From Gemmatimonadota bacterium (GTDB lineage Bacteria; Gemmatimonadota; Gemmatimonadetes; Gemmatimonadales; Gemmatimonadaceae), in assembly GCA_023249305.1 (NCBI GenBank), contig JAHFCU010000002.1, forward strand, positions 1-38,573: a DNA stretch of 38,573 bases. Reading direction: 5' to 3'. A program made the translations under genes and the position numbers. The notes beneath the pieces were generated by a model. It was not told the DNA's origin, ran no database searches, and worked only from the letters and a program-made list of their open reading frames with translations. Of the stretch, positions 13,738 through 33,461 are shown piece after piece (the first letter of the stretch is position 1; every line of letters begins with the position of its first letter).

Positions 13738-13775
13738 GGGACGCTCACCGATGTTCGGGGGCGTCCCTTCCTCTT
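13738..13775 (+). terminator. Probable terminator between convergent propeller gene and queG
   Basis: A 7-bp stem GGGACGC (13738-13744) / GCGTCCC (13761-13767) with a 16-nt loop is followed by the pyrimidine-rich TTCCTCTT. It lies 25 nt after the propeller-gene stop and just before the queG stop codon, as expected between converging genes. Confidence 0.55.
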
Positions 13776-14954: not shown

Positions 14955-15087
14955 AGATGGAAGATGGGGGATGGAAGATGGGAGAGGGAAGACGGGAGAT
15001 CGGGTTACTCGCGCGGGTCTTCCTGCCTCGGCCCCATGCTCCTAACGTGTATCCATGGAATCACCTATCTCCCGCCTCCCATCTTCC
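14955..15087. repeat. GGGAGAT-heptad inverted-repeat element, copy A
   Basis: A purine-rich left arm (14955-15003) made of imperfect 7-nt units (GATGGAA, GATGGGG, GATGGGA and similar) is mirrored by a pyrimidine-rich right arm (15067-15087). GGAAGATGGGAG (14973-14984) is exactly complementary to 15076-15087, and GACGGGAGAT (14991-15000) pairs with 15067-15076 except for one base. The unpaired core is about 63-66 nt. The element fills the divergent gap between the small queG-linked gene and the acyltransferase, and its right arm overlaps the first codons of the latter. A 16-nt stretch of the right arm (15068-15083) equals the reverse complement of 33021-33036 in copy C. Confidence 0.8.
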
Positions 15088-16403
15088 AGCTGATCTTGTC
15101 CATCCCCGGCCTCATGCCCCTCATCTCGCGTCTCGCGACGCGCGCTTACTACCGCTACACGGTAGGTGGCGCGCGCGTCCCTGCCGCGGGACCGGTACTG
15201 CTAGTGGCCAACCACAACAACGGTTTGTTGGATCCGGCCTTCGTGACCGTCGCGGCGCAGCGCGAGGTGCAGTTCCTAGCGAAGTCCCCGCTCTTCACAC
15301 ATCAGATGATCGGCTGGCTCGTGAAAGCCGTGGGATCCATTCCGGTCTACCGCGCGCAGGACGATCGGCGCCTGCTCGGCCAGAACCGCGACATCTTCAA
15401 TGCGGTGCACGAAGCCCTCGGGCGCGGCGCCGCGGTCGGCATCTTCCCTGAAGGCACGAGCCACTCGGGATCGCGGCTCTCGCCCATCAAGACGGGGGCC
15501 GCACGCATCGCACTCGGCGCCGTGAAGCATATCGGCGGCGCGTTCCCCATCGTTCCCGTCGGGCTCGTCTTTCGCGACCGAAACAGCGTGCGCAGCGAAG
15601 TGCGCGTTGTCGTCGGTGATCCCTTCGACTGGAGCGACCTCGCCAGCCGCAGCGACGAGAAGTTTGCGGTGCGCGAACTCACCAAGCGCATTGACGGTGC
15701 GATGCGCACCGTCACGCTGAATCTCGACTCATGGGAAGACGCGGCGCTGGTGCACGTCGCCGAGCAGATCTGGGCCGCCGAGCAGGGCTCGCCGCGCGAC
15801 TCGGAGTCGACCGTCTCACGGCTCGCACTCACGGCCAGCGTCCTCCAGCGGTTCCGGCTGCGCGGCGACGCGGAGTGGCAGGACACGGCGCGCGAGCTGC
15901 GGGCGCACGCGCGCATGCTGCAGCGCATGGGACTGTCGCCTCAGGCGCTCAAGGAAGACGTGCGCTTGACGGCGGCCTTGCGCTGGCTGTTGATGCGGCT
16001 GCCGCTGTTGGCCGCCCTGCCCCTTGCCGCGCTTGCGCTGCTCGTCTACTGGCCGCCGCTAGCCGGGGCGCGCTGGGTCTCGAAGCACACAGGCGAAGGA
16101 CCTGACTCACAGACGACGTACCACGTGCTCGGCGTCGCGCTCTTCTGCACGATCTGGACGCTAGTGCTGGCCGGCGCGGCCGCATGGGTACTCGGCTGGG
16201 CGTGGGGACTTGGCGTGTTCCTCTTCCTGCCAGTGGCTGGCGCGGGCGCCGGCGTGGTGGCCGAGCGCCGCCGCCTCCGCTGGATGGCGGTGCGCCGGTT
16301 CTTCGTGCGGCATCTGCACCGACGGCGCCTGGGCCGCATGCGCGCGCGACAGATCGCAATCGCGGCGCACCTCAACGAGTTACTCGAGATCGGCACGCAG
16401 TAG
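15036..16403 (+). CDS. PlsC-like phospholipid/glycerolipid acyltransferase
   Basis: The product transfers an acyl chain to a glycerol-phosphate-type acceptor at the inner membrane. From the ATG at 15036 it has 455 residues. The motif VANHNNGLLDP (His60, Asp66) has five residues between His and Asp rather than the usual four, a spacing I recall from yeast-type glycerol-3-phosphate acyltransferases. The second motif FPEGTSHSGSRLSPIKTGAARIAL (glycine/glutamate block at 137-140) and SIPVYR are also present. Two hydrophobic regions near residues 310-335 and 360-405 anchor the C-terminus, which ends in a basic tail. The start is uncertain: residues 11-17 from this ATG are encoded by repeat element A, and the ATG at 15114 (MPLISRLATRAYYR) would avoid it. 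Neither has a good Shine-Dalgarno sequence. Confidence 0.88.
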   Translation: MLLTCIHGITYLPPPIFQLILSIPGLMPLISRLATRAYYRYTVGGARVPAAGPVLLVANHNNGLLDPAFVTVAAQREVQFLAKSPLFTHQMIGWLVKAVGSIPVYRAQDDRRLLGQNRDIFNAVHEALGRGAAVGIFPEGTSHSGSRLSPIKTGAARIALGAVKHIGGAFPIVPVGLVFRDRNSVRSEVRVVVGDPFDWSDLASRSDEKFAVRELTKRIDGAMRTVTLNLDSWEDAALVHVAEQIWAAEQGSPRDSESTVSRLALTASVLQRFRLRGDAEWQDTARELRAHARMLQRMGLSPQALKEDVRLTAALRWLLMRLPLLAALPLAALALLVYWPPLAGARWVSKHTGEGPDSQTTYHVLGVALFCTIWTLVLAGAAAWVLGWAWGLGVFLFLPVAGAGAGVVAERRRLRWMAVRRFFVRHLHRRRLGRMRARQIAIAAHLNELLEIGTQ

Positions 16404-16420
16404 CGCCGCGGGTCGCGGCG
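16404..16420 (+). terminator. Small GC hairpin after the acyltransferase stop
   Basis: CGCCGC (16404-16409) pairs with GCGGCG (16415-16420) around a 5-nt loop immediately after the TAG. No U tract follows, so termination here would be weak or Rho-assisted. Confidence 0.3.
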
Positions 16421-16492
16421 AATCACGACGGCAAGTAAACTGCATCACCACGCCGCGCGCATGCCGGCGCGGTTGCCCTGGTCACTCACACC

Positions 16493-17488
16493 ATGCCAAA
16501 GCCCAAGAAGAGGAAGGCGCCACGCACGGCGCGCGGAAAGCCCGCTGATCCACGGCTGCGCCGCACGGCCGAGCATGCCGCGCTCGCCGGCGTGCGTGAG
16601 CGGCTGCACGAGGGGCACCGGGCGGCGGGCCGCAAGCCGCCGGGCGGACGCCGCACGCGCGAAGCGCAGCGCCGCATTGACGACGCCATCAGAGATGCGA
16701 CGCCGCCGATGACGGAAGACCAGAAGCTCCTCAGCTTCGCGCCCAAACACAGCGACGACTTCACACGCACCGACCCGTGGCGCGTGATGCGCATCATGGG
16801 CGAGTTCATCGAGGGCTTCGACAAGCTGGCCACGGTGGAGAAGGGCGTGACGTTCTTCGGCTCGGCGCGCACCGCGCCGGACGATCCGCAGTATCTCGCG
16901 GCGGTGGAAACGGCGAAGCTCCTCGCCGAGATGGGATTCGCGATCGTCACGGGCGCGGGGCCTGGCATCATGGAGGCCGCCAACAAGGGGGCGCAGGAGG
17001 GCGGCGGCCACTCGGTGGGATGCAACATCGAACTGCCATTCGAGCAGGGGGCCAATCCATACGTTGATACGCTGATTGACTTCCGGTACTTCTTCGTCCG
17101 CAAGACGATGTTCATCAAGTACAGCATCGGCTACGTGATCTTCCCCGGCGGCTTCGGCACGATGGACGAGCTGTTCGAGGCGCTGACGTTGATCCAGACG
17201 GGCAAGATTTCGCAGTTCCCCGTGGTTCTGTTCGGGACGCACTACTGGGCGGGGCTGGTGCGCTGGATGCAAGCGCGCGTGCTGGGCGAGAAGAAGATCT
17301 CGCCGGGGGACCTCGACCTGGTCGTGATCACGGATGATCCCCGGGAAGCCGCGGACGTGATCGCGGCGGCGTGGGAAGCGCAGATGCAGGAGGCGGCCGA
17401 TGCCGTGCGTAAGTCCTGGCAGGGACAGATGAACCGGATGGAACGGGAAGCGAAGCGGCTCACCGAGGCGGCGCGACGCAAACGATAA
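16493..17488 (+). CDS. LOG-family (TIGR00730-type) nucleotide phosphoribohydrolase-like protein
   Basis: LOG-type enzymes cleave nucleoside 5'-monophosphates to base and ribose 5-phosphate. The 331-aa product shows the Rossmann-like core from about residue 118 (VTFFGSART), the phosphate-binding GAGPGIMEAANKGA (154-167), the conserved Arg-Lys pair (203-204) and the hallmark PGGFGTMDE (218-226). The first 70 residues are an extra, strongly basic segment (PKPKKRKAP..., RRTREAQRR) not part of the catalytic fold. Whether it acts on cytokinin-type or ordinary purine/pyrimidine nucleotides cannot be told. The ATG lacks a good Shine-Dalgarno sequence, so a later start is possible. Confidence 0.9.
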   Translation: MPKPKKRKAPRTARGKPADPRLRRTAEHAALAGVRERLHEGHRAAGRKPPGGRRTREAQRRIDDAIRDATPPMTEDQKLLSFAPKHSDDFTRTDPWRVMRIMGEFIEGFDKLATVEKGVTFFGSARTAPDDPQYLAAVETAKLLAEMGFAIVTGAGPGIMEAANKGAQEGGGHSVGCNIELPFEQGANPYVDTLIDFRYFFVRKTMFIKYSIGYVIFPGGFGTMDELFEALTLIQTGKISQFPVVLFGTHYWAGLVRWMQARVLGEKKISPGDLDLVVITDDPREAADVIAAAWEAQMQEAADAVRKSWQGQMNRMEREAKRLTEAARRKR

Positions 17489-17521
17489 CGATGAGCGAGC
17501 GAACGCGCGCCACGTCGCACA

Positions 17522-17548
17522 AAGGGGAGGCCATCGCAGCCTCCCCTT
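17522..17548. terminator. Bidirectional terminator-like hairpin between LOG gene and DUF4142 gene
   Basis: A perfect 10-bp stem AAGGGGAGGC (17522-17531) / GCCTCCCCTT (17539-17548) with a 7-nt loop lies between two converging stop codons (17488 and 17571). On the minus strand it is followed by TTTG, so it best fits termination of the minus-strand gene. Confidence 0.7.
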
Positions 17549-17570
17549 CGTGCTGAGTGTGACGCGTTGC

Positions 17571-18110
17571 CTACTTTCGCGGCCCGAGACGCTGCGCCAG
17601 TTCCTGCGCCATGCGGCTGTGTGTCTCGAACGCCGGTACAACCTGCCCAAAGAGCGCGCTGAGATCGGCATGCTGAGCGGCCGGCAACCACTCGGTGTTG
17701 ATGGCGTTGAGGAGCGCCTTGTGGTATTCGATTTCATGGCGCACGAACAGGACATCAAACGCAATATCGGGCCTGCCGCGGAGTTCCTTCACGATCCTCT
17801 CATGCTCAGCCTGGCCGGGCGGGTTCGACGACGGCTTCGGCCGGAGATGAATCTGCGCCGCGATATCACGCGCCATCTGGCGTGCCATCTCATGCTCGCG
17901 GACGAGCATCGCGGCGAAATCGCGCACTTCCTTGGACTGACCGTGCTCGACCGCGAGCCGGGCGCAGGCGAGGTCCACGCTGACCATCTCCTCGAAGCGT
18001 GCGAGTATGGCCTCGTCATCCGGCAGCGTGTGTGTTCGCCGTGGCGTCGCACTGCCCATGAGGCTCAGCGACAGGCCCGCGAGCGCTGCAATTTGAGGGA
18101 CCCTTCTCAT
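17571..18110 (-). CDS. DUF4142-family exported four-helix protein
   Basis: The 179-aa product has a signal peptide (VPQIAALAGLSLSLMGSA) and then an all-helical DUF4142-type domain in two helix pairs, with the characteristic His/Glu-rich segments FAAMLVREHEMARQMA and FVRHEIEYHKALL and the C-terminal ETHSRMAQELAQRL. The family is related to the ferritin-like DUF305/DUF4142 group; its biochemical role is not established. The ATG at 18110 has GGAG 7 nt upstream. It lies 78 nt downstream of the MBL-hydrolase gene and could be co-transcribed with it. Confidence 0.85.
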   Translation of the reverse strand: MRRVPQIAALAGLSLSLMGSATPRRTHTLPDDEAILARFEEMVSVDLACARLAVEHGQSKEVRDFAAMLVREHEMARQMARDIAAQIHLRPKPSSNPPGQAEHERIVKELRGRPDIAFDVLFVRHEIEYHKALLNAINTEWLPAAQHADLSALFGQVVPAFETHSRMAQELAQRLGPRK

Positions 18111-18188
18111 GCTTTCGCTCCGCGAGAGGAGGCGACGGAATGTGGCACATCGGCGGCCAGCCGCAAGGACGGGCGTAGCGAGTGGCGG

Positions 18189-18986
18189 CTACACTCGTGC
18201 CGATGAGACGCCGCGGCGCACGCCGGCGACCCAGTTCTCCATGGTGTAGTCGCCGCTCGTGTACCAGCGGCCGATCCGGTCAACGCCCAGCACGAGACGC
18301 GCAATCGTCGCGTCGTCGAGCCCGTCGACGATCAGGCGTTCCATGCGAGCCACGGTCGCCTCGATCCAATCGGCCTTGGCAGTAAGCAGTCGCAAGGGGT
18401 CTTCGAGAAGACCGCGATGCGCGTCGAAGAACCGCCGCGGCTGCAGCGCAATGATGCGGCGCAATGAACTCGCGGTGGCACGCGCGTCCTCGGTGGCGTG
18501 CGCGATGCGCACCTTCACCCCGACGAACAAGTCGCCGCCGAACACCGTGCGCGTGTCCGCATCCCAGAGCACGTGATGGTCCGCGGAGTGGCCGGGTGTT
18601 GGAATCGTCTCGAGTCCCGCGGGAAGCACGAAGGAGTTGACCGATGCGACCGCCACGGGCGTGCCCCACGAGAAGCGGCGATAGAACAGGATGGGCGCCG
18701 GGTTAGCCAGCTTGGCGCGCGTGGCCTCAGGCATCCACGTCGGGATACCGCGCCGAGCGAGCACGGCAACGCCACCGGAGTGATCCTCATGGTAGTGCGT
18801 GATTGCCGCGCCGGTGATCGGATGCGCGTCGAGCCATCGCTCCAAATCCGGCGCGGCGGCCGGGAATCCGTTATCCACGAGCACGCCGCGCACCACAAAC
18901 GCGCTGACGCGCATTCCCGAAAGCCGCGACTTCCAGGTCGTGAACCGGAGTTGGGTGACGTCGTCGAAGCGCGTGATCTGGAGCAT
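18189..18986 (-). CDS. MBL-fold metallo-hydrolase
   Basis: The 265-aa metallo-beta-lactamase-fold enzyme carries the dinuclear zinc motif THYHEDHSGG (His64, His66, Asp68, His69), a third-ligand segment TPGHSADHHVLW (His133) and the bridging Asp152 in FGGDLF. The C-terminal third is helical, with a final His in FFDAHRG, as in glyoxalase II/LACTB2-like hydrolases. The substrate is unknown; there is no signal peptide, so it is cytoplasmic. The start lacks a Shine-Dalgarno sequence, but TAGATT lies 9 nt before the ATG and could be the -10 box of a very short-leader or leaderless transcript. Confidence 0.9.
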   Translation of the reverse strand: MLQITRFDDVTQLRFTTWKSRLSGMRVSAFVVRGVLVDNGFPAAAPDLERWLDAHPITGAAITHYHEDHSGGVAVLARRGIPTWMPEATRAKLANPAPILFYRRFSWGTPVAVASVNSFVLPAGLETIPTPGHSADHHVLWDADTRTVFGGDLFVGVKVRIAHATEDARATASSLRRIIALQPRRFFDAHRGLLEDPLRLLTAKADWIEATVARMERLIVDGLDDATIARLVLGVDRIGRWYTSGDYTMENWVAGVRRGVSSARV

Positions 18987-18995
18987 CGCGGTGGT

Positions 18996-19001
18996 AATCT
19001 A
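18996..19001 (-). promoter_or_regulatory. Candidate -10 box for the MBL-hydrolase gene
   Basis: On the minus strand TAGATT ends 9 nt before the ATG, with no Shine-Dalgarno between. No convincing -35 is seen. It belongs to a recurrent TANNTT pattern before several starts in this window. Confidence 0.35.
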
Positions 19002-19017
19002 GCCCGGCCGGCCCGGA

Positions 19018-19046
19018 TTGCCCCGGACGCTACGAACGCGTAACTT
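19018..19046 (+). promoter_or_regulatory. Candidate greA promoter
   Basis: TTGCCC (19018-19023) and TAACTT (19041-19046) are separated by exactly 17 nt, in the divergent gap between the MBL-hydrolase gene and greA. The predicted transcript would start near 19053, upstream of the terminator-like hairpin at 19075. Confidence 0.5.
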
Positions 19047-19074
19047 CACCTCAGAACAACCAAGCAAGCGTCGA

Positions 19075-19116
19075 GCGCCCGGCCCGAAACGGCCGGGCGC
19101 CGTCCTTTTGTCTTTT
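19075..19116 (+). terminator. Intrinsic terminator inside the greA leader (possible attenuator)
   Basis: A perfect 10-bp GC stem GCGCCCGGCC (19075-19084) / GGCCGGGCGC (19091-19100) with loop CGAAAC is followed by the U-rich CGTCCTTTTGTCTTTT (19101-19116). It lies 18 nt before the greA ATG. The neighbouring gene upstream points the other way, so the only plus-strand transcript it could stop is the greA leader itself. Confidence 0.75.
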
Positions 19117-19134
19117 CCCGGATGTGCCCCCTGT

Positions 19135-19602
19135 ATGATTGAATCCCTCAAACACAAGCTGAGCCAGGAAGCCGAGAAGCTGCGGCACGAGCTTAACGTG
19201 ATATTGCCGGCGGAGATCCGCCGCGCCGTCGAGATGGGCGACTTGCGCGAAAACAGCGAATACAAGTCGGCGCTCGAACGCCAGCAATTCGTGCAGGCGC
19301 GCCTCGGCCAGCTCTCGTCGCGACTCGCAAAGCTGTCGTCCATTGACCCAAGCCAGATTCCCGCCAACGAGGTGGGCCTCGGCTCGAAAGTGGTCGTGGT
19401 TTGCCAGGAGACCAAGGAGACGGAGACGTACCACCTCGTGTTCGGCGATTCCGAGGACTTCGACGAGGGGCACGTGACGATGATGTCGCCCATCGGCCGC
19501 TCGTTGTTGGGCAAGAAGGTCGGCGACCTCGTGCTGCTCAAGCTGCCGGCGCGCACGCGCAAGATGAAGATTGTGGAACTGACCACGATTCACGACACCT
19601 AA
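19135..19602 (+). CDS. greA: Transcript cleavage/elongation factor GreA
   Basis: GreA enters the RNA polymerase secondary channel and stimulates cleavage of backtracked RNA. The ATG at 19135 gives 155 residues, close to the usual 158; the frame is open further upstream, but that stretch would be translated from the terminator hairpin. The N-terminal coiled coil (about 1-75) carries the tip GDLRENSEY, with both catalytic acidic residues kept, and the C-terminal FKBP-like domain has VGLGSKVVVV and SPIGRSLLGKKVGDLV. The coiled-coil tip region VILPAEIRRAVEMGD differs from the common AIAEARE-GD form, so a second, more canonical Gre factor may exist elsewhere. Expression may be attenuated in its leader. 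Confidence 0.93.
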   Translation: MIESLKHKLSQEAEKLRHELNVILPAEIRRAVEMGDLRENSEYKSALERQQFVQARLGQLSSRLAKLSSIDPSQIPANEVGLGSKVVVVCQETKETETYHLVFGDSEDFDEGHVTMMSPIGRSLLGKKVGDLVLLKLPARTRKMKIVELTTIHDT

Positions 19603-19625
19603 GCGCTGCCGCGTCCTGGTCTGAA

Positions 19626-19653
19626 GGCCCCGCATTCATATGAATGGGGGGCC
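19626..19653. terminator. Palindromic terminator between convergent greA and glpD
   Basis: Two 14-nt arms, GGCCCCGCATTCAT (19626-19639) and ATGAATGGGGGGCC (19640-19653), are complementary at 13 of 14 positions. The palindrome lies between the greA stop (19602) and the glpD stop (19661) and can fold equally on both strands. Confidence 0.65.
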
Positions 19654-19660
19654 TCGCCAT

Positions 19661-21292: not shown

Positions 21293-21397
21293 GATGATCG
21301 TCGGTGATTCCGAGTCTACCCCTTCGCACCGTAGGGCGACAGAGCGACGACGGGCCGCGACGTGCGGACAGTAATAGCCGCGGGCGAGCACGGCGCC

Positions 21398-21403
21398 TAA
21401 CTT
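21398..21403 (+). promoter_or_regulatory. Candidate -10 box for the fadI-led operon
   Basis: TAACTT lies 9 nt before the fadI ATG in the 120-nt gap shared with glpD. There is no Shine-Dalgarno before the ATG and no good -35, so a near-leaderless transcript is possible. Confidence 0.35.
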
Positions 21404-21412
21404 CCATACTCT

Positions 21413-22708: not shown

Positions 22709-22762
22709 ACGAATGGCGGACCGCAGCCGTGGCGTGGCGCGGGCCGCGAAGGGTGTGAGGCC

Positions 22763-24922
22763 ATGAGCGCACTTTCGGTGGTGATGCACGACGGTGTGGC
22801 CGTCGTCACGTTTGATCTGCCCGGCGAACCGGTCAACAAGTTCTCGAAGGCGGTGGTGGCCGACTTCGTGGACGTCTTCGACCGCGTCGAACGCGATGCG
22901 GCGGTGAAGGGCGCGGTGTTGATTAGCGGCAAGCCCGACACATTCATCGCCGGTGCGGACATTGACCAGTTCCTCGAGTTCAGGTCCGCGGCCGACGCGA
23001 CGGTAGAGAGCGCCGAGGGCCACAAGCTGATGAGTCGGCTCGAGGCCGGGCGCGTGCCGTGGGTCGCGGCAATCCATGGCGCCTGCCTCGGCGGCGGTCT
23101 CGAGGCGGCGCTCGCCTGTGCGTACCGCATTGCGGGCGATTCGCCCAAGACGGTGCTCGCGCTGCCGGAAGTGCAGCTCGGGCTGATCCCCGGCGCCGGC
23201 GGCACGCAGCGGCTCCCGCGTACGGTTGGGCTGCAGGCGGCGCTCGACATGATCCTGACCGGCAAGAACGTGCGCGCCAAGAAGGCGCTGCAAACGGGGC
23301 TGGTGGATGAGATGGTACACCCGAACATCCTGCGCGAAGTGGCGATCCGCCGTGCGCGCGAACTCGGCGCCGGCACACTGGCACGCAGGCGTGAACGCCA
23401 TGCGGGCGTCAAGGGCGCCCTGCTCGAAAACAATCCCGTAGGACGCGCGGTCGTGTTCCGTCAGGCGCGCGAGATGACGATGAAGAAATCGCGCGGCCAC
23501 TACCCGGCGCTGCTCGCAGCACTTGAGGCAGTGGCGGCCGGATATCGCGGCTCCGCGGCTGATGGATTTGCCACCGAGGCGCGGCTGTTTGGCGAAATGG
23601 CGTTCACGCCGGTGAGCCGCCAGCTGATCTTCCTGTTCTACGCGACGACGTCGCTCAAGAAGGACACGGGTGCAAACGGCAACGCGCCGCTCTTTGCCCC
23701 CCCGGTGCCAATCGACAAGATCGGCATCCTCGGCACGGGCTTCATGGGGGCGGGCATCGCCGCAGTGAGCGCGATGCAGGGCGTGTCGGTGCGCTTCAAG
23801 GACACGAAGCACGCGGCGGTGGGCAAGGGAATCGGTGCCGTGCGTGATGTGCTCAGGGAGCGGCTGAAGAAGAAGCAGATTACCAAGCAGCAATTTGCGG
23901 ACCAAGTGTCGCTGGTGAGCGGCACCGTGGAGTACACGGGATTTGGTAACATACCGCTACTAATAGAGGCGGTCTTCGAGGATCTCGCAGTCAAGCACGC
24001 GGTGGTGAAGGAAGCTGAGGCCGTGCTGCCACCGGGGGCGATCTTCGCGACAAACACAAGCACGATCCCGATTCACAGGGTGGCGGAGGCGTCGCACGAT
24101 CCATCGCGCGTGGTGGGGATGCACTTCTTCTCCCCCGTGCACAAGATGCCGCTGCTCGAGGTGATCGTAACTCCACGCACCGCGCCCGACGTGGTGGCGA
24201 CCACCGTGGCCTTCGGGCGCAAGCTCGGCAAGACGGTGATCGTGGTGAACGATGCCCCGGGATTCTATGTCAACCGCATCCTGGCGCCGTACATCAACGA
24301 AGCCGGCAAGCTGCTCGATGAAGGGGCGCGCATCGAGGCCATTGACCGCGCGATGCTCGACTACGGGTTCCCGGTGGGACCGGTGACGTTGCTCGATGAA
24401 GTGGGGCTCGACGTCGCGGGGAAGAGCGGCGCGATCATGGCGTCGGCGTTTGGCGACCGTCTGCAGCCCTCGGCGACGCTGGGCAAGGTACTCGCCGCCG
24501 GACGGCTCGGCCGGAAGGGGAAGAAGGGCTTCTACCTCTATGACGAAAGCGGGAAGAAGGGCGGCGTGGACGAGTCGGTCTATGCGGTGACGCCCGCGGG
24601 GTCGAAGCGCATCGAGGTGAGCGCCGCCGAGATCCAGGAGCGCTTGTCGCTGGCGATGGTGAACGAAGCGGTGCGCTGTGTGGAGGAGGGGATCTTGCGC
24701 GCGCCGCGCGATGGCGACATCGGCGCGGTCTTCGGCATCGGCTTCCCGCCATTTCGCGGCGGGCCGCTGCGCGTCGTGGACACAATCGGCGCCGCGGAGC
24801 TGGTACGCCGCCTCGAGGCACTCAACGCGAAGTACCCGGGGCGGTTCGTGCCGGCGAAGCTGTTGCGCGAGATGGCGAAGACCAACGCGACGTTCTATCC
24901 GAGAACGGGGAAACCGGTATGA
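22763..24922 (+). CDS. fadJ: Fatty acid oxidation complex alpha subunit, FadJ type
   Basis: The 719-aa bifunctional protein joins enoyl-CoA hydratase/isomerase and L-3-hydroxyacyl-CoA dehydrogenase, acting with FadI. The N-terminal crotonase domain (1-about 290) has IHGACLGGGLEAALA and the two catalytic glutamates Glu114 and Glu136 (ALPEVQLGLIPGAGGTQR). The dehydrogenase half starts with the NAD-binding IGILGTGFMGAGIA (G321-G329) and carries the catalytic His454 in GMHFFSPVH, NTSTIPI and the C-terminal domain ending GIGFPPFRGGPLR. All key residues are intact. Its stop overlaps the next ATG by 4 nt (ATGA), so the M14 peptidase gene is translationally coupled to it. Confidence 0.95.
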   Translation: MSALSVVMHDGVAVVTFDLPGEPVNKFSKAVVADFVDVFDRVERDAAVKGAVLISGKPDTFIAGADIDQFLEFRSAADATVESAEGHKLMSRLEAGRVPWVAAIHGACLGGGLEAALACAYRIAGDSPKTVLALPEVQLGLIPGAGGTQRLPRTVGLQAALDMILTGKNVRAKKALQTGLVDEMVHPNILREVAIRRARELGAGTLARRRERHAGVKGALLENNPVGRAVVFRQAREMTMKKSRGHYPALLAALEAVAAGYRGSAADGFATEARLFGEMAFTPVSRQLIFLFYATTSLKKDTGANGNAPLFAPPVPIDKIGILGTGFMGAGIAAVSAMQGVSVRFKDTKHAAVGKGIGAVRDVLRERLKKKQITKQQFADQVSLVSGTVEYTGFGNIPLLIEAVFEDLAVKHAVVKEAEAVLPPGAIFATNTSTIPIHRVAEASHDPSRVVGMHFFSPVHKMPLLEVIVTPRTAPDVVATTVAFGRKLGKTVIVVNDAPGFYVNRILAPYINEAGKLLDEGARIEAIDRAMLDYGFPVGPVTLLDEVGLDVAGKSGAIMASAFGDRLQPSATLGKVLAAGRLGRKGKKGFYLYDESGKKGGVDESVYAVTPAGSKRIEVSAAEIQERLSLAMVNEAVRCVEEGILRAPRDGDIGAVFGIGFPPFRGGPLRVVDTIGAAELVRRLEALNAKYPGRFVPAKLLREMAKTNATFYPRTGKPV

Positions 24923-26622
24923 ACGGCAGATCGGAGAAGGGAGGACGGAGATGGGAGATCGCCGGGGCGACGATATGGCATGCGGCACTGCTTGCCGTGC
25001 TTCTCCCATCTCCCATCTCCCATCTCCAATCACAGTCAACGCGAGCAGAACGCAGTCATTACACCGAGACTTCCACCTACGCCGATGTCGTCGCGTTCAT
25101 TGACTCACTGCAGTTGAAGGGCGCGAACGTCGTGGCCGGAAGCATCGGCAAGACCACGCAGGGACGCGACCTGCCGTATGTCATCGCCTCGCGGCCGCTC
25201 GTGCACTCACCCACCGACGCCCGACGGCTCGGACGGCCCATCGTCTACGTGCAGGGCAACATCCACGCGGGCGAAGTCGAGGGGAAGGAAGCACTGCAGG
25301 CGCTGCTGCGTGACCTGGTCCTGTCGCCGAAGAAGAACGTCCTCGACTCGATCGTGCTGATTGCGGTGCCGATCTACAACGCCGACGGCAACGAGGTGTT
25401 CAAGCCGCAGGCGCAGAATCGCGGGGCGCAGAATGGACCCGAGTTGGTCGGCCAGCGCCCGAATGCGATGATGCTCGATCTGAACCGCGACTACGTGAAG
25501 GCGGAGGCGCCCGAGACGCGCGCGTCGCTGCAGATGTTCAACGCGTGGGATCCCGACCTGTTCGTGGACCTCCACACGACCGACGGCAGCTACCACGGCT
25601 ATGCGCTCACCTACTCGCCGTCGCTGCATCCGGCGGCGGGAATCCGCGGTGGGCCGTTCGGCGGCGCGTTCGTGCGCGACTCGATGCTGCCGACATTGCG
25701 CAGGCGTGTGCGTGTGCGGCACCACTACGAGATCTTCGATTACGGCAACTTCACGGGCGACGAAGGCCCGGCGGCGCCGGGTGAGGCGAAGCAGTGGTCC
25801 ACGTACGACCACCGCGGGCGCTATGGCACGAACTACTACGCCCTGCGCGGCCGGCTCTCCGTGCTGAGCGAAGCGTACTCGCATGATCCGTTTGAGCGGC
25901 GTGTGAAGGCGACGTACGCCTTCGTGACGGAGCTGCTCTCGCTGACGGCCGAGAAGTCGCGCGCGGTGCTCGCGCTCACGCGCGCCTCGGACGCAGCGCT
26001 CGAGGCGGGCAAGATCGCGAACGTGCCGGTGCGCGCGGCGCTGACGCAGACGCCCTCGATGCAGCAGGTCATCGAGGAGACGATTGAGAAGACCGACGCG
26101 ACGCCCACCGAACCCGGAGTACGCCGCGGCTATCGGCGCACCGGGAAGTTCGTCACCACGACGATGCCCGTGCGCGACCGGTTCGACGCGACGCGCACGG
26201 CGCCAATGCCGTGGGGGTGGTTGGTGACCCCCGCCGCGGCCGACACGATTGGCCCGATGCTGCGATTGCATGGCGTGCGCGTGATGCGCACGACAGCGCC
26301 GGCAGCGATTGCCGATCTCGAATGTTATGTCGCCGATTCGGTGGTGGCGTCGTCGCGGACCTTCCAGGGGCATCGTGAGACGCGCTTCGAAGGGCGATGG
26401 GTGCCGAGCACGGCCGACATGCCTGCCGGCGCTCTCATCGTGAGCGCGCGCCAGCCGCTCGGCGTGCTCGCGCAAATGCTGCTTGATCCCACCAGTGACG
26501 ACGGCCTAGGCACCTGGAATCTGTTCGATGCCGCCATCGCCCGGCCGGCCATCCAGGGTGGCAGTGTGCCGGTCTGCCGAATCGCCAAGGCCCCGGCTGT
26601 GCCGGGACGCCTGCTTCCATAA
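24919..26622 (+). CDS. Exported M14-family zinc carboxypeptidase
   Basis: The 567-aa metallo-carboxypeptidase has zinc ligands His116 and Glu119 in NIHAGEVEG, His219 in VDLHTTDG, the substrate-binding LNRDYVK (Arg190) and the catalytic Glu318 in RLSVLSEAYSHDPF. A C-terminal beta domain of about 170 residues follows (VRRGYRRTGKFVTT..., RFEGRWVPSTADMPAG). The ATG overlaps the fadJ stop. The N-terminal 40 residues form a usable export signal (basic n-region, h-region ATIWHAALLAVLLPS, c-region PISHLQSQS) but are encoded by repeat element B, so the signal appears to be recruited from repeat DNA. A proline dehydrogenase gene follows after 6 nt, fitting peptide-to-amino-acid catabolism. Confidence 0.93.
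   Translation: MNGRSEKGGRRWEIAGATIWHAALLAVLLPSPISHLQSQSTRAERSHYTETSTYADVVAFIDSLQLKGANVVAGSIGKTTQGRDLPYVIASRPLVHSPTDARRLGRPIVYVQGNIHAGEVEGKEALQALLRDLVLSPKKNVLDSIVLIAVPIYNADGNEVFKPQAQNRGAQNGPELVGQRPNAMMLDLNRDYVKAEAPETRASLQMFNAWDPDLFVDLHTTDGSYHGYALTYSPSLHPAAGIRGGPFGGAFVRDSMLPTLRRRVRVRHHYEIFDYGNFTGDEGPAAPGEAKQWSTYDHRGRYGTNYYALRGRLSVLSEAYSHDPFERRVKATYAFVTELLSLTAEKSRAVLALTRASDAALEAGKIANVPVRAALTQTPSMQQVIEETIEKTDATPTEPGVRRGYRRTGKFVTTTMPVRDRFDATRTAPMPWGWLVTPAAADTIGPMLRLHGVRVMRTTAPAAIADLECYVADSVVASSRTFQGHRETRFEGRWVPSTADMPAGALIVSARQPLGVLAQMLLDPTSDDGLGTWNLFDAAIARPAIQGGSVPVCRIAKAPAVPGRLLP
24929..25031. repeat. GGGAGAT-heptad inverted-repeat element, copy B (inside coding sequence)
   Basis: A 32-nt left arm (24929-24960) and a 32-nt right arm (25000-25031) are complementary at 25 of 32 positions and built from imperfect GGGAGAT / ATCTCCC units; the core between them is 39 nt. 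The right arm has three almost perfect tandem CCCATCT units. The whole element lies inside the first 38 codons of the M14 peptidase, starting 7 nt after the fadJ stop. The left arm encodes SEKGGRRWEI and the right arm LPSPISHLQS. Confidence 0.8.
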
Positions 26623-26628
26623 GAGAGC

Positions 26629-28888: not shown

Positions 28889-29850
28889 TGATCTTCCGCC
28901 TGCTCGTTTGCACCATCGCCGCACCGCTGCTCGCGCAATCTGCCGAACTCGACGCCGGGATCGCGCACTACAACGCCCGTCGTTGGACCGAGGCGCACGC
29001 GTTCTTCGCCAATGCCACCAAGACGCAACCGCGCAACGCCGACGCTGCGCTCTGGTACGGCAAGACGCTCATCGCCGAAGACAAGGTCAACAACGCCGAG
29101 GACTGGTTCAACAAGGCCGCGTCGCTCGATCCGAAGCGCGGTGAAATTCAGTTGTGGCTGGCGCGCGCCATCGGCATTCAGGCGCAGCGCGCGAACATCC
29201 TGCGCCAGCCGTTTCTCGCGCGTCGTCTGAAAAGCACCGTAGACCGCGCGATTGAGCTCGATCCCGACAACGTGGACGCGCGAGAGCTGCGCTGGCAGTT
29301 CTACGCGATGGCGCCCGGCGTGATGGGTGGCAGTGACTATAAGGCGCGGGCCGAGGCCGCGGAGGTCATGAAACGCAACCGGTATCGCGGGCAACTGATC
29401 GCGATCAACGCCGCCTCACGCGCGAAGGATCAGCCGACTGTCGAGCGGACACTCAAGGCAATGGTCGCCGAGTTTCCGGACTCGCTGGGCCCGATGGGGT
29501 CATACGCGGGCTCGCTTGCCGATCAGGGACGCGCAGCTGAGGCATTCGGCGTCGTCGAGGCGTACCAGAAGCGCCGGCCAAATGATCCGATGGCGCTCTA
29601 TCAGATTGGGCGCATTGCGGCGGTCTCAGGGCAGCAACTCGATCGCGGAGAGGATGCGCTACGGAAGTTCCTGATCCTCGCGCCACCACCGGCGCCAAAC
29701 GTTCCATCGTTGAGCAACGCCCACATGCGACTCGGCAATATCGCCCAGAAGCGCGGCAACACGGCGGCGGCGCGCGCCGAGTACGAGCTGGCGCTGAAGC
29801 TTGATCCCCGCAACGGACAGGCGCGCCGCTCGCTGGGGACGCTCAAGTAG
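28888..29850 (+). CDS. Exported tetratricopeptide-repeat protein
   Basis: The 320-aa product has a short signal peptide (MIFRLLVCTIAAPLLAQS) and then TPR-like helix pairs: AELDAGIAHYNARRWTEAHAFFANATKTQP, ADAALWYGKTLIAEDKVNNAEDWFNKAASLDP, and near the end NAHMRLGNIAQKRGNTAAARAEYELALKLDP. The middle part is more divergent and may be a different helical solenoid. The ATG shares one base with the rsgA stop, so it is coupled to it. TPR proteins mediate protein-protein contacts; the partner is unknown. It closes the tightly packed run begun by fadI. Confidence 0.85.
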   Translation: MIFRLLVCTIAAPLLAQSAELDAGIAHYNARRWTEAHAFFANATKTQPRNADAALWYGKTLIAEDKVNNAEDWFNKAASLDPKRGEIQLWLARAIGIQAQRANILRQPFLARRLKSTVDRAIELDPDNVDARELRWQFYAMAPGVMGGSDYKARAEAAEVMKRNRYRGQLIAINAASRAKDQPTVERTLKAMVAEFPDSLGPMGSYAGSLADQGRAAEAFGVVEAYQKRRPNDPMALYQIGRIAAVSGQQLDRGEDALRKFLILAPPPAPNVPSLSNAHMRLGNIAQKRGNTAAARAEYELALKLDPRNGQARRSLGTLK

Positions 29851-29915
29851 CATGGCTACTCTCGAGCGCGGGCCGATCGTGAGCGCTATGCGTTGCACCC
29901 ACGAGGACTGCTAAC

Positions 29916-30455
29916 ATGACGAGCCACAACGCGAACGAATCGCCGAGCACCACGGCACATCGCGAGGAAGCCGCGCGGCGCGATGGCGCGCGTTGCATCG
30001 TGCTCACCGTCAGCGACTCGCGCACTGCGGCAACCGACGAATCTGGCGCGCTGATTGAGCGGATGCTGACGGAGGCCGGGCACGTCGTTGTCACGAAGCA
30101 ACTGCTGACCAACGACGAGGTCGCACTACGCACCGCGCTCGACGCGGCGCTAGCGCGTGAGGACGTGGATGCCGTGCTCTGCACGGGTGGTACTGGGCTT
30201 GGCGCGCGTGACCGCACAGTGGATGTGGTGCGGCCGATGCTGGAGCGCGAGCTTCCGGGCTTCGGCGAGCTGTTCCGGATGCTGAGTTTCCTCGAGCAAA
30301 TCGGAGCGGCGGCGATGCTAAGCCGCGCGCTGGCCGGTGCGGCGCGGGGCAAGTTCGTGGTGGTAATGCCCGGCTCGCGCGCCGCGGTCGAGTTGGCGAT
30401 GACACGGCTCGTCATCCCCGAACTCAAGCACGCCGTGCGCGAGATCAGGCGCTAG
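29916..30455 (+). CDS. moaB: MoaB/MogA-family molybdopterin-binding protein
   Basis: MoaB/MogA proteins adenylylate molybdopterin before metal insertion in molybdenum cofactor synthesis. The 179-aa product shows the fold and signatures CIVLTVSDSRT, the MPT-binding CTGGTGLGARDRTVD, PGFGELFRMLSFLEQIGAAAMLSRALAG and VVMPGSRAAVELAM. The N-terminal 25 residues are polar and probably disordered. GAGG lies 9 nt before the ATG. It follows the TPR gene by 65 nt and converges on the M1 gene with a 14-nt gap. No other moa or moe gene is visible. Confidence 0.92.
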   Translation: MTSHNANESPSTTAHREEAARRDGARCIVLTVSDSRTAATDESGALIERMLTEAGHVVVTKQLLTNDEVALRTALDAALAREDVDAVLCTGGTGLGARDRTVDVVRPMLERELPGFGELFRMLSFLEQIGAAAMLSRALAGAARGKFVVVMPGSRAAVELAMTRLVIPELKHAVREIRR

Positions 30456-30469
30456 GGAAGACTGTCAGG

Positions 30470-32539
30470 TCACGGCAGCGGCGCCGTTGCCGCTTTCTTC
30501 CACGTGTTGTTCGACCGGTTGACGTCGGCGTACGCCTCGTCCGGGTCCACCACGATTTGCGCGATGTCCTTGTTCGAGGCCAGCCCGTAGGTGAACTGCC
30601 GCTCGTTCTGCCGCCAGATATCGGCCGGCAGCTTCACCCGCTGCGTGGTCCCGTCGGTGAAGGAGATGTCCATCTCCACCGGCATCACGATGCCGCCCTT
30701 CTGCTCGACGGTGATGCGGAAGTAGTTCTTGCCCTTGTCCTCGTTGCCGAGCACGTCCTTGGCATCCTGACGCTCCACGCCCGTGACGGTCTGGTCGTTG
30801 GCGTACGCAGTGTAGAACCAGCCACGCCAGAACCAGCTGAGCGACTCGCCGAGTCCGTCTTCCATGGAACGGAAGAAGTCGGCGGGCTGTGGATGCCTGA
30901 ACATCCACCGCTGGCTATAGCCGCGGAACGCCTGGTCAAAGGCCTCCTGCCCGGCGATGTGTTCGCGCAACATGACAAGGCCGCTGGCCGGCTTGGTGTA
31001 TCCGTTCGGCCCGAACGAGTTGCGCACGTTGAGATCCGAGTGAGCCATGATCGGCACCGAAGGACTCACACGCATGTAGTTCGCGATGCTCTTCGCCGAG
31101 CCCGGCAGGCGCATCGCTGGCCAGTCCTTGTCGAAGTCGATGGAGCCGTAGTGTTCGAGAAAGGAGTTGAGCCCTTCGTCCATCCACGTCCACATGCGCT
31201 CGTCTGACGCGACGATCATCGGAAACCAGTTGTGGCCGACTTCGTGGATCGTCACCGCCGCCAGTGAGTATTCAAGCGACTTGTCGTACGTGCCGTCGGG
31301 GCGCGGGCGCGCGCCGCAGAACGCAATCATCGGGTATTCCATGCCGCCGACTGTGCCATGGACGTTGGACGCCTGCGGATACGGGTACTCGAACGCCATG
31401 CGTCCGTACGTCACCATCGTCTGCGCAATGGCCTTGGTGCTGATCTTGTTCCAGAGCGGCATCGCCTCGCGCGGGTACACGGAGTGCAGTTCGATGAGCC
31501 GACCGCCCGGTTTGTAGCGAAAGCCCATCGCGTCCCACGCGAAGCCGCGCGAGGATGCCCATGAGAAGTCGCGGACGTTCTGCGCGGTGAAGTGCCACGT
31601 CAGGCTGCCGGTTCCCGCGGGGCGAATCGCCGGCGTGGCGATCTCCTCGGGCTTCACGATGTACACCGGCGTGTCCGACGCGAAGGCCTTCGTCAGGCGC
31701 TCGCGCTGTGCCGCCGTGAGCACCTCAGCGGGGTTCTGCAGCACGCCCGTCGCACGCACGATGTGGTCGTGCGGCACCGTGATGCTGACGTCGAAGTTGC
31801 CGAACTCGAGGTAGAACTCGCCGCGACCGAGAAACTGGTTGTTCTGCCAGCCGTTCACGTCGTCATAGACCGCGGCGCGCGGATACCACTGCGCGTTCTC
31901 GTACTCCCACCCGTCCTTCAGTTTCTCCTTCTGTCCGCGGCCGTTGCGTCCGCCCTCTGGTACCTCGTGCGACCAATCGATGGCGACCTTCACGGCCTGG
32001 CCACTGCCGAGTGGCGCGTCGAGGTTCACACGCATCTGCGTGCCGTTCAACCGGTACTGCGCATCACGACGCCTGCCGGCGGCGTCAACGAACTGCACGC
32101 GCGAAAGCGTGTAGCCGCCCTCGAACTCGCTCATCAGGTAACGGCGGAAGCGCGGATCCATGCCCTTCGGGATCGCGCCGGACATCGCCGCGGCGCGCGA
32201 GTCGGCCTTCTCGATGTTCTGGTCGAGTTGGAACCAGAGGTACGTCAGCTGGTCAGGCGAGTTGTTGTGATAGGTCACCACCTCACTGCCGGCCAGCCGG
32301 TGCGTCGTGGTGTCGAGCGCGACCTTGATCGCGTAATCCACCTGCTGCTGCCAGTACTTCGCACCCGGCGCGCCTGATGCGCGGCGCAGGTCGTTGGCCA
32401 CCGGCCAGTCCTCGAGCGCACGGAAGTTGGACTGGTTCACCTTCTTGGTGGTATCGGCGTTGAGCCAGACCTGCGCGGACGCCTCGCCAGCCACGGAAAG
32501 CGTCGCCGAAATAGCGAAGACAACGGATGTGATGCGCAT
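30470..32539 (-). CDS. Exported M1-family zinc aminopeptidase
   Basis: The gluzincin has HEVGH-x18-E (zinc ligands His432, His436, Glu455 and catalytic Glu433, numbered from the chosen start) and the substrate-binding exopeptidase motif GGMEYP. From the ATG at 32539 it has 689 residues and a good signal peptide (MRITSVVFAISATLSVAGEASAQ). An in-frame ATG at 32590 would add 17 residues, overlap the OsmC gene by 11 nt and leave the signal internal; I prefer the shorter form. The N-terminal beta domain (DYAIKVALDTTTHRLAGSEVVTYHNN) is typical, and the C-terminus is a beta domain. It probably trims peptides in the periplasm or outside the cell. Confidence 0.93.
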   Translation of the reverse strand: MRITSVVFAISATLSVAGEASAQVWLNADTTKKVNQSNFRALEDWPVANDLRRASGAPGAKYWQQQVDYAIKVALDTTTHRLAGSEVVTYHNNSPDQLTYLWFQLDQNIEKADSRAAAMSGAIPKGMDPRFRRYLMSEFEGGYTLSRVQFVDAAGRRRDAQYRLNGTQMRVNLDAPLGSGQAVKVAIDWSHEVPEGGRNGRGQKEKLKDGWEYENAQWYPRAAVYDDVNGWQNNQFLGRGEFYLEFGNFDVSITVPHDHIVRATGVLQNPAEVLTAAQRERLTKAFASDTPVYIVKPEEIATPAIRPAGTGSLTWHFTAQNVRDFSWASSRGFAWDAMGFRYKPGGRLIELHSVYPREAMPLWNKISTKAIAQTMVTYGRMAFEYPYPQASNVHGTVGGMEYPMIAFCGARPRPDGTYDKSLEYSLAAVTIHEVGHNWFPMIVASDERMWTWMDEGLNSFLEHYGSIDFDKDWPAMRLPGSAKSIANYMRVSPSVPIMAHSDLNVRNSFGPNGYTKPASGLVMLREHIAGQEAFDQAFRGYSQRWMFRHPQPADFFRSMEDGLGESLSWFWRGWFYTAYANDQTVTGVERQDAKDVLGNEDKGKNYFRITVEQKGGIVMPVEMDISFTDGTTQRVKLPADIWRQNERQFTYGLASNKDIAQIVVDPDEAYADVNRSNNTWKKAATAPLP

Positions 32540-32579
32540 TCCCAGCAACCTTATGTGAGAAGAGGGGAAGGAGGTTTCT

Positions 32580-32999
32580 TCACGCGTCATTGAGCACGAC
32601 CGACCAGGTGACTGGTATGGCCGGATCGATCGAATCGCGCACGCTGCAGTACTTCGTCACCGCCAGCTCCACCGCGCGCTCGGCGTGTTCGCGCTCGATG
32701 CCCGCGCCGTCAATGCGGTAGACGAGGTGCGCCTTCGTTACGCGGCGCGGGATCTCCTCACGCCGCTCGCCCTGCACTTCGATGCTGAGTGCCTGCACCG
32801 GGGTGCGCCGTTTGGCGAGGATGTCCACGACATCCACGCCCGTGCAGCAGCCAAGGCCGATGAGGAGCATGTCCACCGGGCCGGGGCCGGTCTTCGCGGA
32901 AGCGTCAACGCGAATCTGTGGGCCGCCAGGGCGTCCGGCGTCGAAACGGTGCTCACCGGCCCAAGTGATCGCGACGCGGTTGTCGGGGCGAATGGACAT
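32580..32999 (-). CDS. OsmC-family protein
   Basis: The 139-aa product matches the OsmC/Ohr superfamily (YhfA-like branch). It carries the first redox Cys in GLGCCTGVDVVDIL (Cys51/Cys52) and the second, Cys118, in TKYCSVRDSI. These enzymes are thiol-dependent hydroperoxide reductases, although the YhfA branch has no confirmed substrate. Two adjacent cysteines at the first site are slightly unusual. There is no signal peptide. It lies between csaA (upstream, separated by repeat element C) and the M1 aminopeptidase gene, all on the minus strand. Confidence 0.9.
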   Translation of the reverse strand: MSIRPDNRVAITWAGEHRFDAGRPGGPQIRVDASAKTGPGPVDMLLIGLGCCTGVDVVDILAKRRTPVQALSIEVQGERREEIPRRVTKAHLVYRIDGAGIEREHAERAVELAVTKYCSVRDSIDPAIPVTWSVVLNDA

Positions 33000-33006
33000 T
33001 AGGGCG

Positions 33007-33120
33007 GCTGGGAGATGGGAGATGGGAGGCGGGAGAGCGGACTCCTGTCGCTGGAAATCTCAGCGGCGCACCGCCGTTCGTCTACCTTCTCCCATCTCCC
33101 TTCTCCCATCTCCCATCAGC
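33007..33120. repeat. GGGAGAT-heptad inverted-repeat element, copy C
   Basis: A 29-nt left arm (33010-33038) and a 29-nt right arm (33086-33114) are complementary at 24 of 29 positions; GCT (33007-33009) and AGC (33118-33120) extend the pairing after a 3-nt offset. The core is 47 nt. The left arm has four GGG tracts spaced exactly 7 nt apart (33010, 33017, 33024, 33031), and the right arm has four CCC tracts also 7 nt apart (33091, 33098, 33105, 33112). Each arm is therefore a textbook G-quadruplex motif, one on each strand. The element fills nearly the whole csaA-osmC gap. Confidence 0.85.
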
Positions 33121-33122
33121 TC

Positions 33123-33455: not shown

Positions 33456-33461
33456 TTGCCG

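What the first reader, a model, noticed from the sequence alone, without database searches (positions are those of the whole stretch)
14955..33120. A dispersed family of heptad-based inverted-repeat elements (three copies in 38 kb)
Copies at 14955-15087, 24929-25031 and 33007-33120 share one design: a purine-rich arm of imperfect GGGAGAT units, an unconserved core of about 39-66 nt, and a pyrimidine-rich arm of ATCTCCC units. Arm complementarity is 25/32 in copy B and 24/29 in copy C. Copies A and C share an identical 16-nt stretch in opposite orientation. All three occupy gaps or gene 5' ends, none interrupts the middle of a gene, and no transposase is nearby. The cores differ, so selection or mobility seems to act on the arms. 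I do not recognise a named repeat family of this form; it could be a MITE/REP-like element or an RNA/DNA structure.
Basis: partly seen in the sequence, partly recalled or inferred. Interest (0 to 1): 0.72.

Follow-up and report, generated by a model that had tools for sequence, protein, structure and literature searches.

The report
Paired seven-letter repeats bracketing genes
Between many genes of these bacteria sit mirrored stacks of a seven-letter DNA word; related species keep stacks in the same places but have rewritten the word, and the two facing stacks tend to change together, which points to a copying process between them.

Summary
The three elements are real and far above chance. They belong to a genome-wide family of tandem heptads, consensus GGNRGAY, in a Gemmatimonadota genus. 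Arrays are mostly intergenic; most (88 of 121) are in inverted pairs, nearly always G-rich arm first, starting about 1 nt after stop codons and ending close to start codons. Comparison with ten same-genus genomes shows: (1) elements recur at orthologous gaps; (2) heptad flavour differs between species and follows the genome more than the locus; (3) the two arms of a locus agree beyond their genome's flavour (position 3: 37 of 46 pairs against 30.6 expected). REP/RAYT and MITE readings fail; a three-tetrad quadruplex is not conserved. Closest known: the intergenic GGGAATC heptads of Xanthomonas and Nostoc (Rehm 2015), with the same gene-edge placement and inverted pairs. Best explanation: slippage-grown arrays whose facing arms are homogenised by template switching, plus an unidentified genome-wide force that sets dialects and keeps GG-RGA. 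No function is shown. New variant of a known, unexplained kind.

The parts
14959..15000 (+). copy A, G-rich arm: about 6 heptads (GGAAGAT/GGGGGAT/GGGAGAG/GGGAGAT)
15001..15059 (.). copy A core; shares TTCCTGCC...TAACGT-like sequence with several orthologous cores
15060..15087 (-). copy A, C-rich arm on + (G-rich on -), about 4 heptads, upstream of the acyltransferase
14706..14954 (-). small ORF upstream of the QueG-type gene (13774-14709); divergent left neighbour of copy A
   Evidence: own gene calls; QueG Pfam hits
15114..16403 (+). acyltransferase (PF01553), divergent right neighbour of copy A
24925..24959 (+). copy B, G-rich arm, 2 nt after the TGA stop (24922) of the 3-hydroxyacyl-CoA dehydrogenase
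24960..25000 (.). copy B core; in the M14 frame it encodes a hydrophobic stretch like that of a signal peptide (by reading)
25001..25031 (-). copy B, C-rich arm on +, about 4 heptads
24919..26622 (+). M14 peptidase ORF whose 5' end runs through copy B if it starts at the ATGA overlap
33003..33037 (+). copy C, G-rich arm on +, just upstream of the OsmC start (32999, - strand)
33038..33079 (.). copy C core; GAGATTT on the - strand recurs in several orthologues
33080..33121 (-). copy C, G-rich arm on -, directly after the stop of the tRNA-binding-domain gene (33123-33455, -)

Best explanation
Each element is a pair of tandem heptad arrays (GGNRGAY), one at each edge of an intergenic gap, with the G-rich strand pointing into the gap from both sides. 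SHOWN: high copy number; anchoring at stop and start codons; almost exclusively convergent pairs; recurrence at orthologous gaps; species-typical flavour at positions 3 and 7; agreement of the two arms, and of unit order in the arms, beyond their genome's flavour; cores alike in forward orientation. INFERRED: arrays grow and homogenise by replication slippage at gene edges; two facing arrays form a hairpin in single-stranded DNA; template switching copies one arm onto the other, so a flavour change in one arm appears in both. A further process makes flavour alike across unlinked loci of a genome and keeps GG-RGA; I cannot identify it (short ectopic exchange, or selection by a reader protein). 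The element is not a transposon. Likely side effects: a DNA/RNA hairpin, and SD-less start regions where a C-rich arm abuts a start codon.
For: Abundance: 121 arrays against 2 shuffled. Order of neighbouring arrays within 250 bp: 58 G-first, 0 reversed, 4 same-strand; in the wider, partly pattern-chosen set 82 pairs and 2 reversed. Arm agreement in stretches not chosen by pattern, against within-genome permutation: dominant letter at position 3 37 of 46 against 30.6 (21 of 10,000 reach it), position 7 39 of 46 against 31.1 (12 of 10,000); by profile overlap 91 and 9 of 10,000. Full set, position 3: 67 of 82 against 48.2, maximum 62 in 10,000. Unit order beats shuffled order in 55 pairs (0 of 500). 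Flavour follows the genome (0 of 5,000) more than the locus (1 of 5,000). Anchoring: median 1 nt after stops, n 54; heptad register locked to stops, 62 of 104 in two of seven classes. Divergent locus A keeps both arms in 9 of the 10 genomes in which the gene was found, this one included, which argues for a DNA-level process. In 116 loci of other records 24 pairs, all G-first. Template switching is reported to homogenise short inverted-repeat arms (PMC8604942 abstract and passages; PMC8794818 abstract).
Against: Template switching can also invert spacers (PMC8604942 passages); reversed cores are barely above chance (12 of 151, about 7 expected). Arm identity does not fall with core length. Position 4 shows no arm agreement. 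33 of 121 arrays have no partner. Slippage and template switching alone explain neither the conserved GG-RGA nor the genome-wide dialects. In four genomes (G000, G002, G004, G005) the top position-3 letter makes only 43-68% of matches. The 'locus' labels are impure: at least two of the 12 clusters merge neighbouring gaps.
Confidence: 0.5

Rival explanations
1. Selected hairpin or cruciform: pairing of the arms is itself the function (mRNA 3'-end protection, insulation of neighbouring genes, or a supercoil sink around a promoter core), and arm agreement is compensatory evolution.
For: Strong folds for B and C, arm agreement, recurrence at orthologous gaps, conserved cores inside the bracket.
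Against: Sense-RNA mismatches show no excess of wobble pairs: 57 G-U against 67 A-C; 12 loci with more wobble, 23 with more A-C (partly pattern-chosen loci). Copy A folds weakly (z -1.4 as DNA, -2.4 as RNA). 33 of 121 arrays lack a partner. The locus-A gene pair is divergent, so ordinary transcripts from the core would carry only one arm. Pairing does not explain GG-RGA or dialects.
Confidence: 0.2
2. Recognition word with species dialects: a protein reads GGNRGAY, and changes in its specificity, or biased uptake or recombination of kin DNA, rewrite the word across the genome, as with DNA uptake sequence dialects.
For: Genome effect on flavour reached in 0 of 5,000 permutations; at least 6 changes of the majority position-3 letter on an 11-genome tree with only 3 of 8 inner branches well supported; GG-RGA kept while positions 3 and 7 vary (all positions but 3 are favoured by the detector). 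DUS dialects are conserved within species and are often found as inverted pairs (PMC3630211 passages).
Against: No reader identified or searched for; only 35 of 249 arrays lie inside called genes, while intragenic DUS are common; the word is tandem; several genomes carry mixed flavours; a reader does not require the two arms of a locus to agree.
Confidence: 0.2
3. Intergenic G-quadruplex elements, as proposed for the Xanthomonas and Nostoc heptads.
For: Same placement and inverted pairs as in Rehm 2015; two-tetrad motif in 220 of 230 arrays of at least 4 units.
Against: Three-tetrad motif in 37 of 230 arrays: 34 of 67 G-flavour, 1 of 5 A-flavour, 0 of 74 C-flavour, 2 of 84 T-flavour. Would-be loop letters G5 and A6 are as conserved as G1 and G2 (with the detector's bias).
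Confidence: 0.06
4. Non-autonomous mobile element (MITE or REP moved by a transposase).
For: Dispersed intergenic palindromes; gap C has arms in 7 of 10 genus genomes and none in G003, G005 and G007.
Against: No shared core between loci; Y1 transposase family PF01797 found in 2 of 11 genus genomes only; orthologous positions kept while the sequence is rewritten; arms occur singly.
Confidence: 0.04

Closest known systems
GGGAATC / GGGGA(C/T)T G-rich intergenic heptad repeats of Xanthomonas and Nostoc (Rehm et al. 2015, PMC4692102; abstract and sections 10, 13, 14, 16 read)
   Same: Tandem heptads, few units each, intergenic, at stop codons on the sense strand or before starts on the antisense strand, convergent inverted pairs, positions kept between related species, function unknown.
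   Different: Unit GGNRGAY; third G not conserved, so no common three-tetrad quadruplex; species dialects and arm agreement measured here, not described in the sections read; another phylum.
TAACTGA heptad repeats of marine Beggiatoaceae (MacGregor 2015, PMC4679880; abstract, section list and passages)
   Same: Tandem heptads close to start codons; canonical ribosome-binding sites rare there; scattered over distant phyla.
   Different: Direct repeats, with one inverted set of 170; one fixed word; not G-rich.
DNA uptake sequence dialects of Neisseriaceae (Frye et al. 2013, PMC3630211; passages)
   Same: Species-specific variants of one repeated word; inverted pairs in intergenic regions.
   Different: Single words of about 10 nt, often intragenic, bound by the ComP pilin; here tandem, largely intergenic, no reader known.
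REP/BIME palindromes with RAYT transposases (recalled; PMC3733652 seen in the search listing only)
   Same: Many short intergenic palindromes.
   Different: Here tandem heptads, and no Y1 transposase found in most genus genomes.
Inverted-repeat homogenisation by template switching (PMC8604942 abstract and passages; PMC8794818 abstract)
   Same: The arms of an inverted repeat become alike through copying.
   Different: Described there for short inverted repeats in yeast genes and for RNA genes; here the arms are tandem arrays and a genome-wide dialect is added.

Membership tests
G-rich intergenic heptad repeats (Rehm 2015 class) | Tandem 7-bp units, mostly about four per array | tested here: met
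   Units per arm: 3 (22), 4 (27), 5 (27) of 110 arms; range 2-16
G-rich intergenic heptad repeats (Rehm 2015 class) | Mostly intergenic, close to gene edges, G strand sense after stops | tested here: met
   35 of 249 arrays inside called genes; median 1 nt from stop, 15 nt from start, 54 each (own gene calls)
G-rich intergenic heptad repeats (Rehm 2015 class) | Convergent inverted pairs | tested here: met
   58 G-first, 0 reversed; 82 and 2 in the wider set
G-rich intergenic heptad repeats (Rehm 2015 class) | Consensus GGGAATC or GGGGAYT | tested here: not met
   Consensus GGNRGAY from 553 units
G-rich intergenic heptad repeats (Rehm 2015 class) | GGG tracts able to form a three-tetrad quadruplex | tested here: not met
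   37 of 230 arrays of at least 4 units
G-rich intergenic heptad repeats (Rehm 2015 class) | Quadruplex formation in vitro (CD) | not testable with these tools
   needs oligonucleotides
REP/BIME-RAYT | Y1 (RAYT) transposase in the genome | tested here: not met
   PF01797 not found in 9 of 11 genus genomes, including the 99% complete G001; found in G006 and G010
MITE | Copies share internal sequence or transposon termini | tested here: not met
   Loci share heptads only, by reading of 44 pairs
MITE | Target-site duplication at filled versus empty sites | not tested
   versions of locus C with and without arms seen, too diverged to judge by eye
DNA uptake sequence | Species dialects of one word | tested here: met
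   dominance weak in G000, G002, G004, G005
DNA uptake sequence | Frequent intragenic copies | tested here: not met
   35 of 249 arrays; isolated single heptads not examined
DNA uptake sequence | ComP-like receptor and biased uptake | not tested
   no search made; needs experiment
Intrinsic terminator / Rfam family | Hairpin followed by T tract, or an Rfam match | tested here: not met
   0 Rfam matches in the window; none of 10 terminator-like sites in 14700-33500 lies at A, B or C, and 9.9 are expected by chance

The most novel reading that the evidence does not exclude
GGNRGAY is the recognition unit of an unknown trans-acting system. A reader or a templated copying process rewrites many unlinked intergenic arrays to a species-typical dialect while keeping their positions, and a second, local process keeps the two arms of each bracket alike. 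The same design, in other phyla and with other heptads, would make the scattered heptad repeats of Xanthomonas, cyanobacteria and others one class.
Probability: 0.2. Interest if true: 0.85.

Novelty: new variant of a known kind. Interest (0 to 1): 0.55.

Why it matters
Intergenic heptad repeats have been reported in bacteria for years without a mechanism; a G-quadruplex has been proposed. A genus with ten comparable genomes, conserved positions and changing flavours is a natural experiment. It weakens the three-tetrad quadruplex idea as a common function, separates a local (arm-to-arm) from a global (dialect) homogenising force, and gives testable predictions for both. It also warns that arm covariation, normally taken as proof of a functional stem, may arise here by copying.

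Tried and rejected
MITE/REP: rejected. Rfam RNA or intrinsic terminator: no match. RNA hairpin selection: 57 wobble against 67 mirror mismatches in the sense strand, so no support. Three-tetrad quadruplex as common feature: rejected. Spacer inversion as a mark of template switching: 12 of 151 against about 7 by chance, not supported. Decay of arm identity with core length: none. Independent polarity of single arrays: 49 against 22 over all stretches, but 13 against 10 in stretches not chosen by pattern, so not claimed. The lack of Shine-Dalgarno-like motifs where a C-rich arm ends within 15 nt of a start (0 of 54 against 437 of 1,380 other genes) is nearly forced by the arm's own sequence and rests on starts called by my own simple gene finder.

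My first dialect label for G000 (GGGAGAT) was a selection artefact: I had fetched its loci with that pattern. Whole-genome counts for G000 give G 10, T 28, C 4. The first parsimony count (7) used that label; the corrected count is 6. I therefore repeated the main tests on stretches not chosen by pattern (46 of the 82 pairs). Even these are not random: they include the regions orthologous to the window and further tiles of the same contigs, and the two G006 contigs were known to carry hits; this biases density, and flavour at most slightly. The first 756 kb gave 44 pairs and doubling the sequence to 1.52 Mb only 58 (slightly different filters), so density is uneven. Whole-genome counts include overlapping matches, so long arrays count several times. 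The reversed-pattern control is close to the GGTAGAN flavour and is not a clean control.

A comparison of arm agreement in Xanthomonas itself was planned and could not be run. No paper on heptad repeats in Gemmatimonadota was found with the searches; that covers only the held open-access library.
Full report
What was checked. The three copies were read directly. Arms of imperfect GGGAGAT units and complementary ATCTCCC units are present at A (14959-15087), B (24925-25031) and C (33003-33121). Matches to the 14-mer exceed dinucleotide shuffles, 26 against 3.08. The repeat finder gives arms of 29-43 nt at 74-85% complementarity. A and C share 17 identical bases in opposite orientation. B and C fold far better than shuffles as DNA (z -4.0 and -5.6), A weakly (z -1.4). 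Rfam has no match in the window.

Setting. The window is part of a 2.5 Mb, 78.6% complete draft genome. One same-genus genome, G009, carries arrays at the same coordinates as JACREJ010000093, a contig of a Gemmatimonadetes groundwater MAG; another, G002, has a contig of the same length as one of WY3.bin98. So the genus lies in Gemmatimonadota. Neighbours of A are a small ORF next to a QueG-type gene on one side and an acyltransferase on the other, divergent. B follows a 3-hydroxyacyl-CoA dehydrogenase and overlaps the 5' end of an M14 peptidase ORF. C lies between a tRNA-binding-domain gene and an OsmC gene.

A family, not three copies. With a detector for GGNRGAY arrays, 39 stretches plus the window (756 kb) gave 116 arrays against a mean of 6.8 in shuffles. 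In 1.156 Mb not chosen by pattern there were 121 against 2 (a stricter threshold, one shuffle). Exact four-unit matches, overlaps counted, numbered 78 (G001), 192 (G008), 213 (G010) and 292 (G003). In a draw of 150 Gemmatimonadota genomes, 16 had at least one; all 5 drawn from this genus had them (38 to 123 matches), and two genomes of genus code g34 had 23 and 39.

Anatomy. From 553 units the consensus is G G N R G A Y: positions 1, 2, 5 and 6 at 95-99%; position 3 C, G or T at about a third each, A 5%; position 4 A 65%, G 28%; position 7 T 48%, C 40%. The detector favours every position but 3, so only position 3 is free of its bias. Of 62 neighbouring pairs of arrays within 250 bp, 58 were G-rich first then C-rich, 4 had the same direction and none was reversed; the wider, partly pattern-chosen set had 82 pairs and 2 reversed. 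In the stretches not chosen by pattern 88 of 121 arrays had a partner and 33 had none; a search for a decayed partner of those 33 found no excess downstream over upstream (13 against 10). G arms begin a median 1 nt after stop codons, C arms end a median 15 nt before starts (54 each, own gene calls). The register is locked: 62 of 104 stop-side arrays fall in two of seven phases, those in which TGA or TAG fits the heptad; 39 of 78 start-side arrays fall in two. The outer terminus tends to read TGAY whether the edge is a stop, a start or neither (T 36-54%, G 50-70%, A 54-66%).

Orthologous loci. The proteins next to A, B and C were found in 9, 10 and 10 of 10 same-genus genomes. Paired arms recur at A in 8 of 9, at B in 8 of 10 (G004 shows a G arm only, G003 remnants) and at C in 7 of 10, but in other flavours: at A, for example, GGCRGAC, GGTGGAC, GGTAGAT, GGCAGAT. 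At C, G003, G005 and G007 have no arms and show AGGAG or AGGAA before the next start; that next gene is not OsmC but another (amidohydrolase-like by reading, not scanned), which in G001 and G010 does have arms before it. Twelve clusters of orthologous gaps with pairs were found by flank comparison; at least two merge neighbouring gaps. Cores of orthologues are alike in forward orientation, 48 of 151 comparisons above all shuffles. Thus the core keeps its orientation and motifs, while the arms are rewritten; in plain percent identity arms of different flavour still align better than cores (for example 0.45 and 0.35 against 0.31 at A), because they share GG-RGA.

Two levels of homogenisation. 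Genome level: three-unit exact counts by position-3 letter (G/T/C) are G001 11/1/91, G003 1/364/0, G006 14/30/106, G007 0/0/48, G008 7/6/222, G009 86/27/11, G010 14/254/12, and with weaker dominance G000 10/28/4, G002 49/29/1, G004 7/13/10, G005 0/34/16. On orthologous clusters in stretches not chosen by pattern (42 pairs), similarity is 0.716 for same genome and different locus, 0.490 for same locus and different genome, 0.438 for neither; the genome effect is never reached in 5,000 permutations, the locus effect once (on the mixed set 0 of 2,000 and p 0.0125). The majority letter changes at least 6 times on an 11-genome tree with 3 of 8 inner branches well supported. Locus level: beyond the genome's flavour the two arms agree, 37 of 46 at position 3 (30.6 expected, 21 of 10,000 permutations reach it) and 39 of 46 at position 7 (31.1, 12 of 10,000); the profile-overlap version gives 91 and 9 of 10,000. 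The larger set, part of it pattern-chosen, gives 67 of 82 against 48.2 at position 3; position 4 does not agree. Unit order also matches. In 116 loci of other records (seven loci of G009 and G002 dropped), 24 opposite-strand pairs are all G-first, with 16 and 23 of 24 agreeing at positions 3 and 7 against 6.2 and 12.3; this permutation does not control for genome flavour. By record title 14 of the 24 are from other phyla, of which I count 8 and 14 agreeing; the other 10 are Gemmatimonadota, some perhaps of this genus.

Mechanism. Agreement of arms calls for pairing selection or copying. Sense-RNA mismatches show no wobble preference, the divergent locus A keeps both arms, and single arrays exist. 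I therefore favour copying by template switching, which is documented for short inverted repeats (PMC8604942 abstract and passages; PMC8794818 abstract). The expected by-product, inverted spacers, is not evident, though inversion of a promoter would be selected against (inference). Slippage can homogenise within an arm. Neither explains the dialects nor the kept GG-RGA; that is the open part, and the reason for the novel case.

Comparison. Rehm et al. 2015 (abstract, sections 10, 13, 14, 16) describe GGGAATC and GGGGA(C/T)T heptads with the same placement, 70 and 75 convergent pairs in two Xanthomonas genomes, 83% of repeats kept in the same gene context, and quadruplexes in vitro, with function unknown. 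Here the third G is free and only 37 of 230 arrays could form a three-tetrad quadruplex, so that cannot be the shared function, although two-tetrad forms remain possible. MacGregor 2015 (abstract and passages) reports TAACTGA heptads before starts. Frye 2013 (passages) gives the model of dialects. The Y1/RAYT family was not found in 9 of 11 genus genomes.

Verdict. Observation confirmed; interpretation partly supported; a new variant of a known but unexplained kind, with arm agreement and species dialects as the new findings.

Noticed in passing
window 24919-25031: If the M14 peptidase starts at the ATGA overlap, copy B encodes its signal-peptide-like N-terminus: basic part from the G arm, hydrophobic part from the core, tail from the C arm. 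In G007 the same frame appears to meet a stop early, so the start may lie further in.
   Followed up: partly
L209, L211, L212, L216, L217 versus L208, L210, L213-L215 (locus C): The gene after the tRNA-binding-domain gene differs between species (OsmC or an amidohydrolase-like gene); three of the five genomes with the latter lack the heptad arms and show an SD-like motif instead.
   Followed up: partly
G004:C4:13280-13349: One array changes flavour along its length, between GGGAGAY and GGTAGAT units, a possible boundary of an ongoing homogenisation.
   Followed up: no
L238 4-87 (G009): A long arm of mostly GGGTGAT units (T at position 4) faces a GGGAGAT arm: a pair whose arms disagree at position 4.
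   Followed up: no
G003 whole genome: G003 has the most uniform flavour (364 of 365 three-unit matches T at position 3), yet no array in the 32 kb of it sampled; this may be chance.
   Followed up: no
L131, L123 (Wenzhouxiangella), L151 (Verrucomicrobiales), L092, L108 (Saprospiraceae), L156 (Chamaesiphon): G-first GGNRGAY pairs occur in records of unrelated phyla, one or two per fetched locus.
   Followed up: partly
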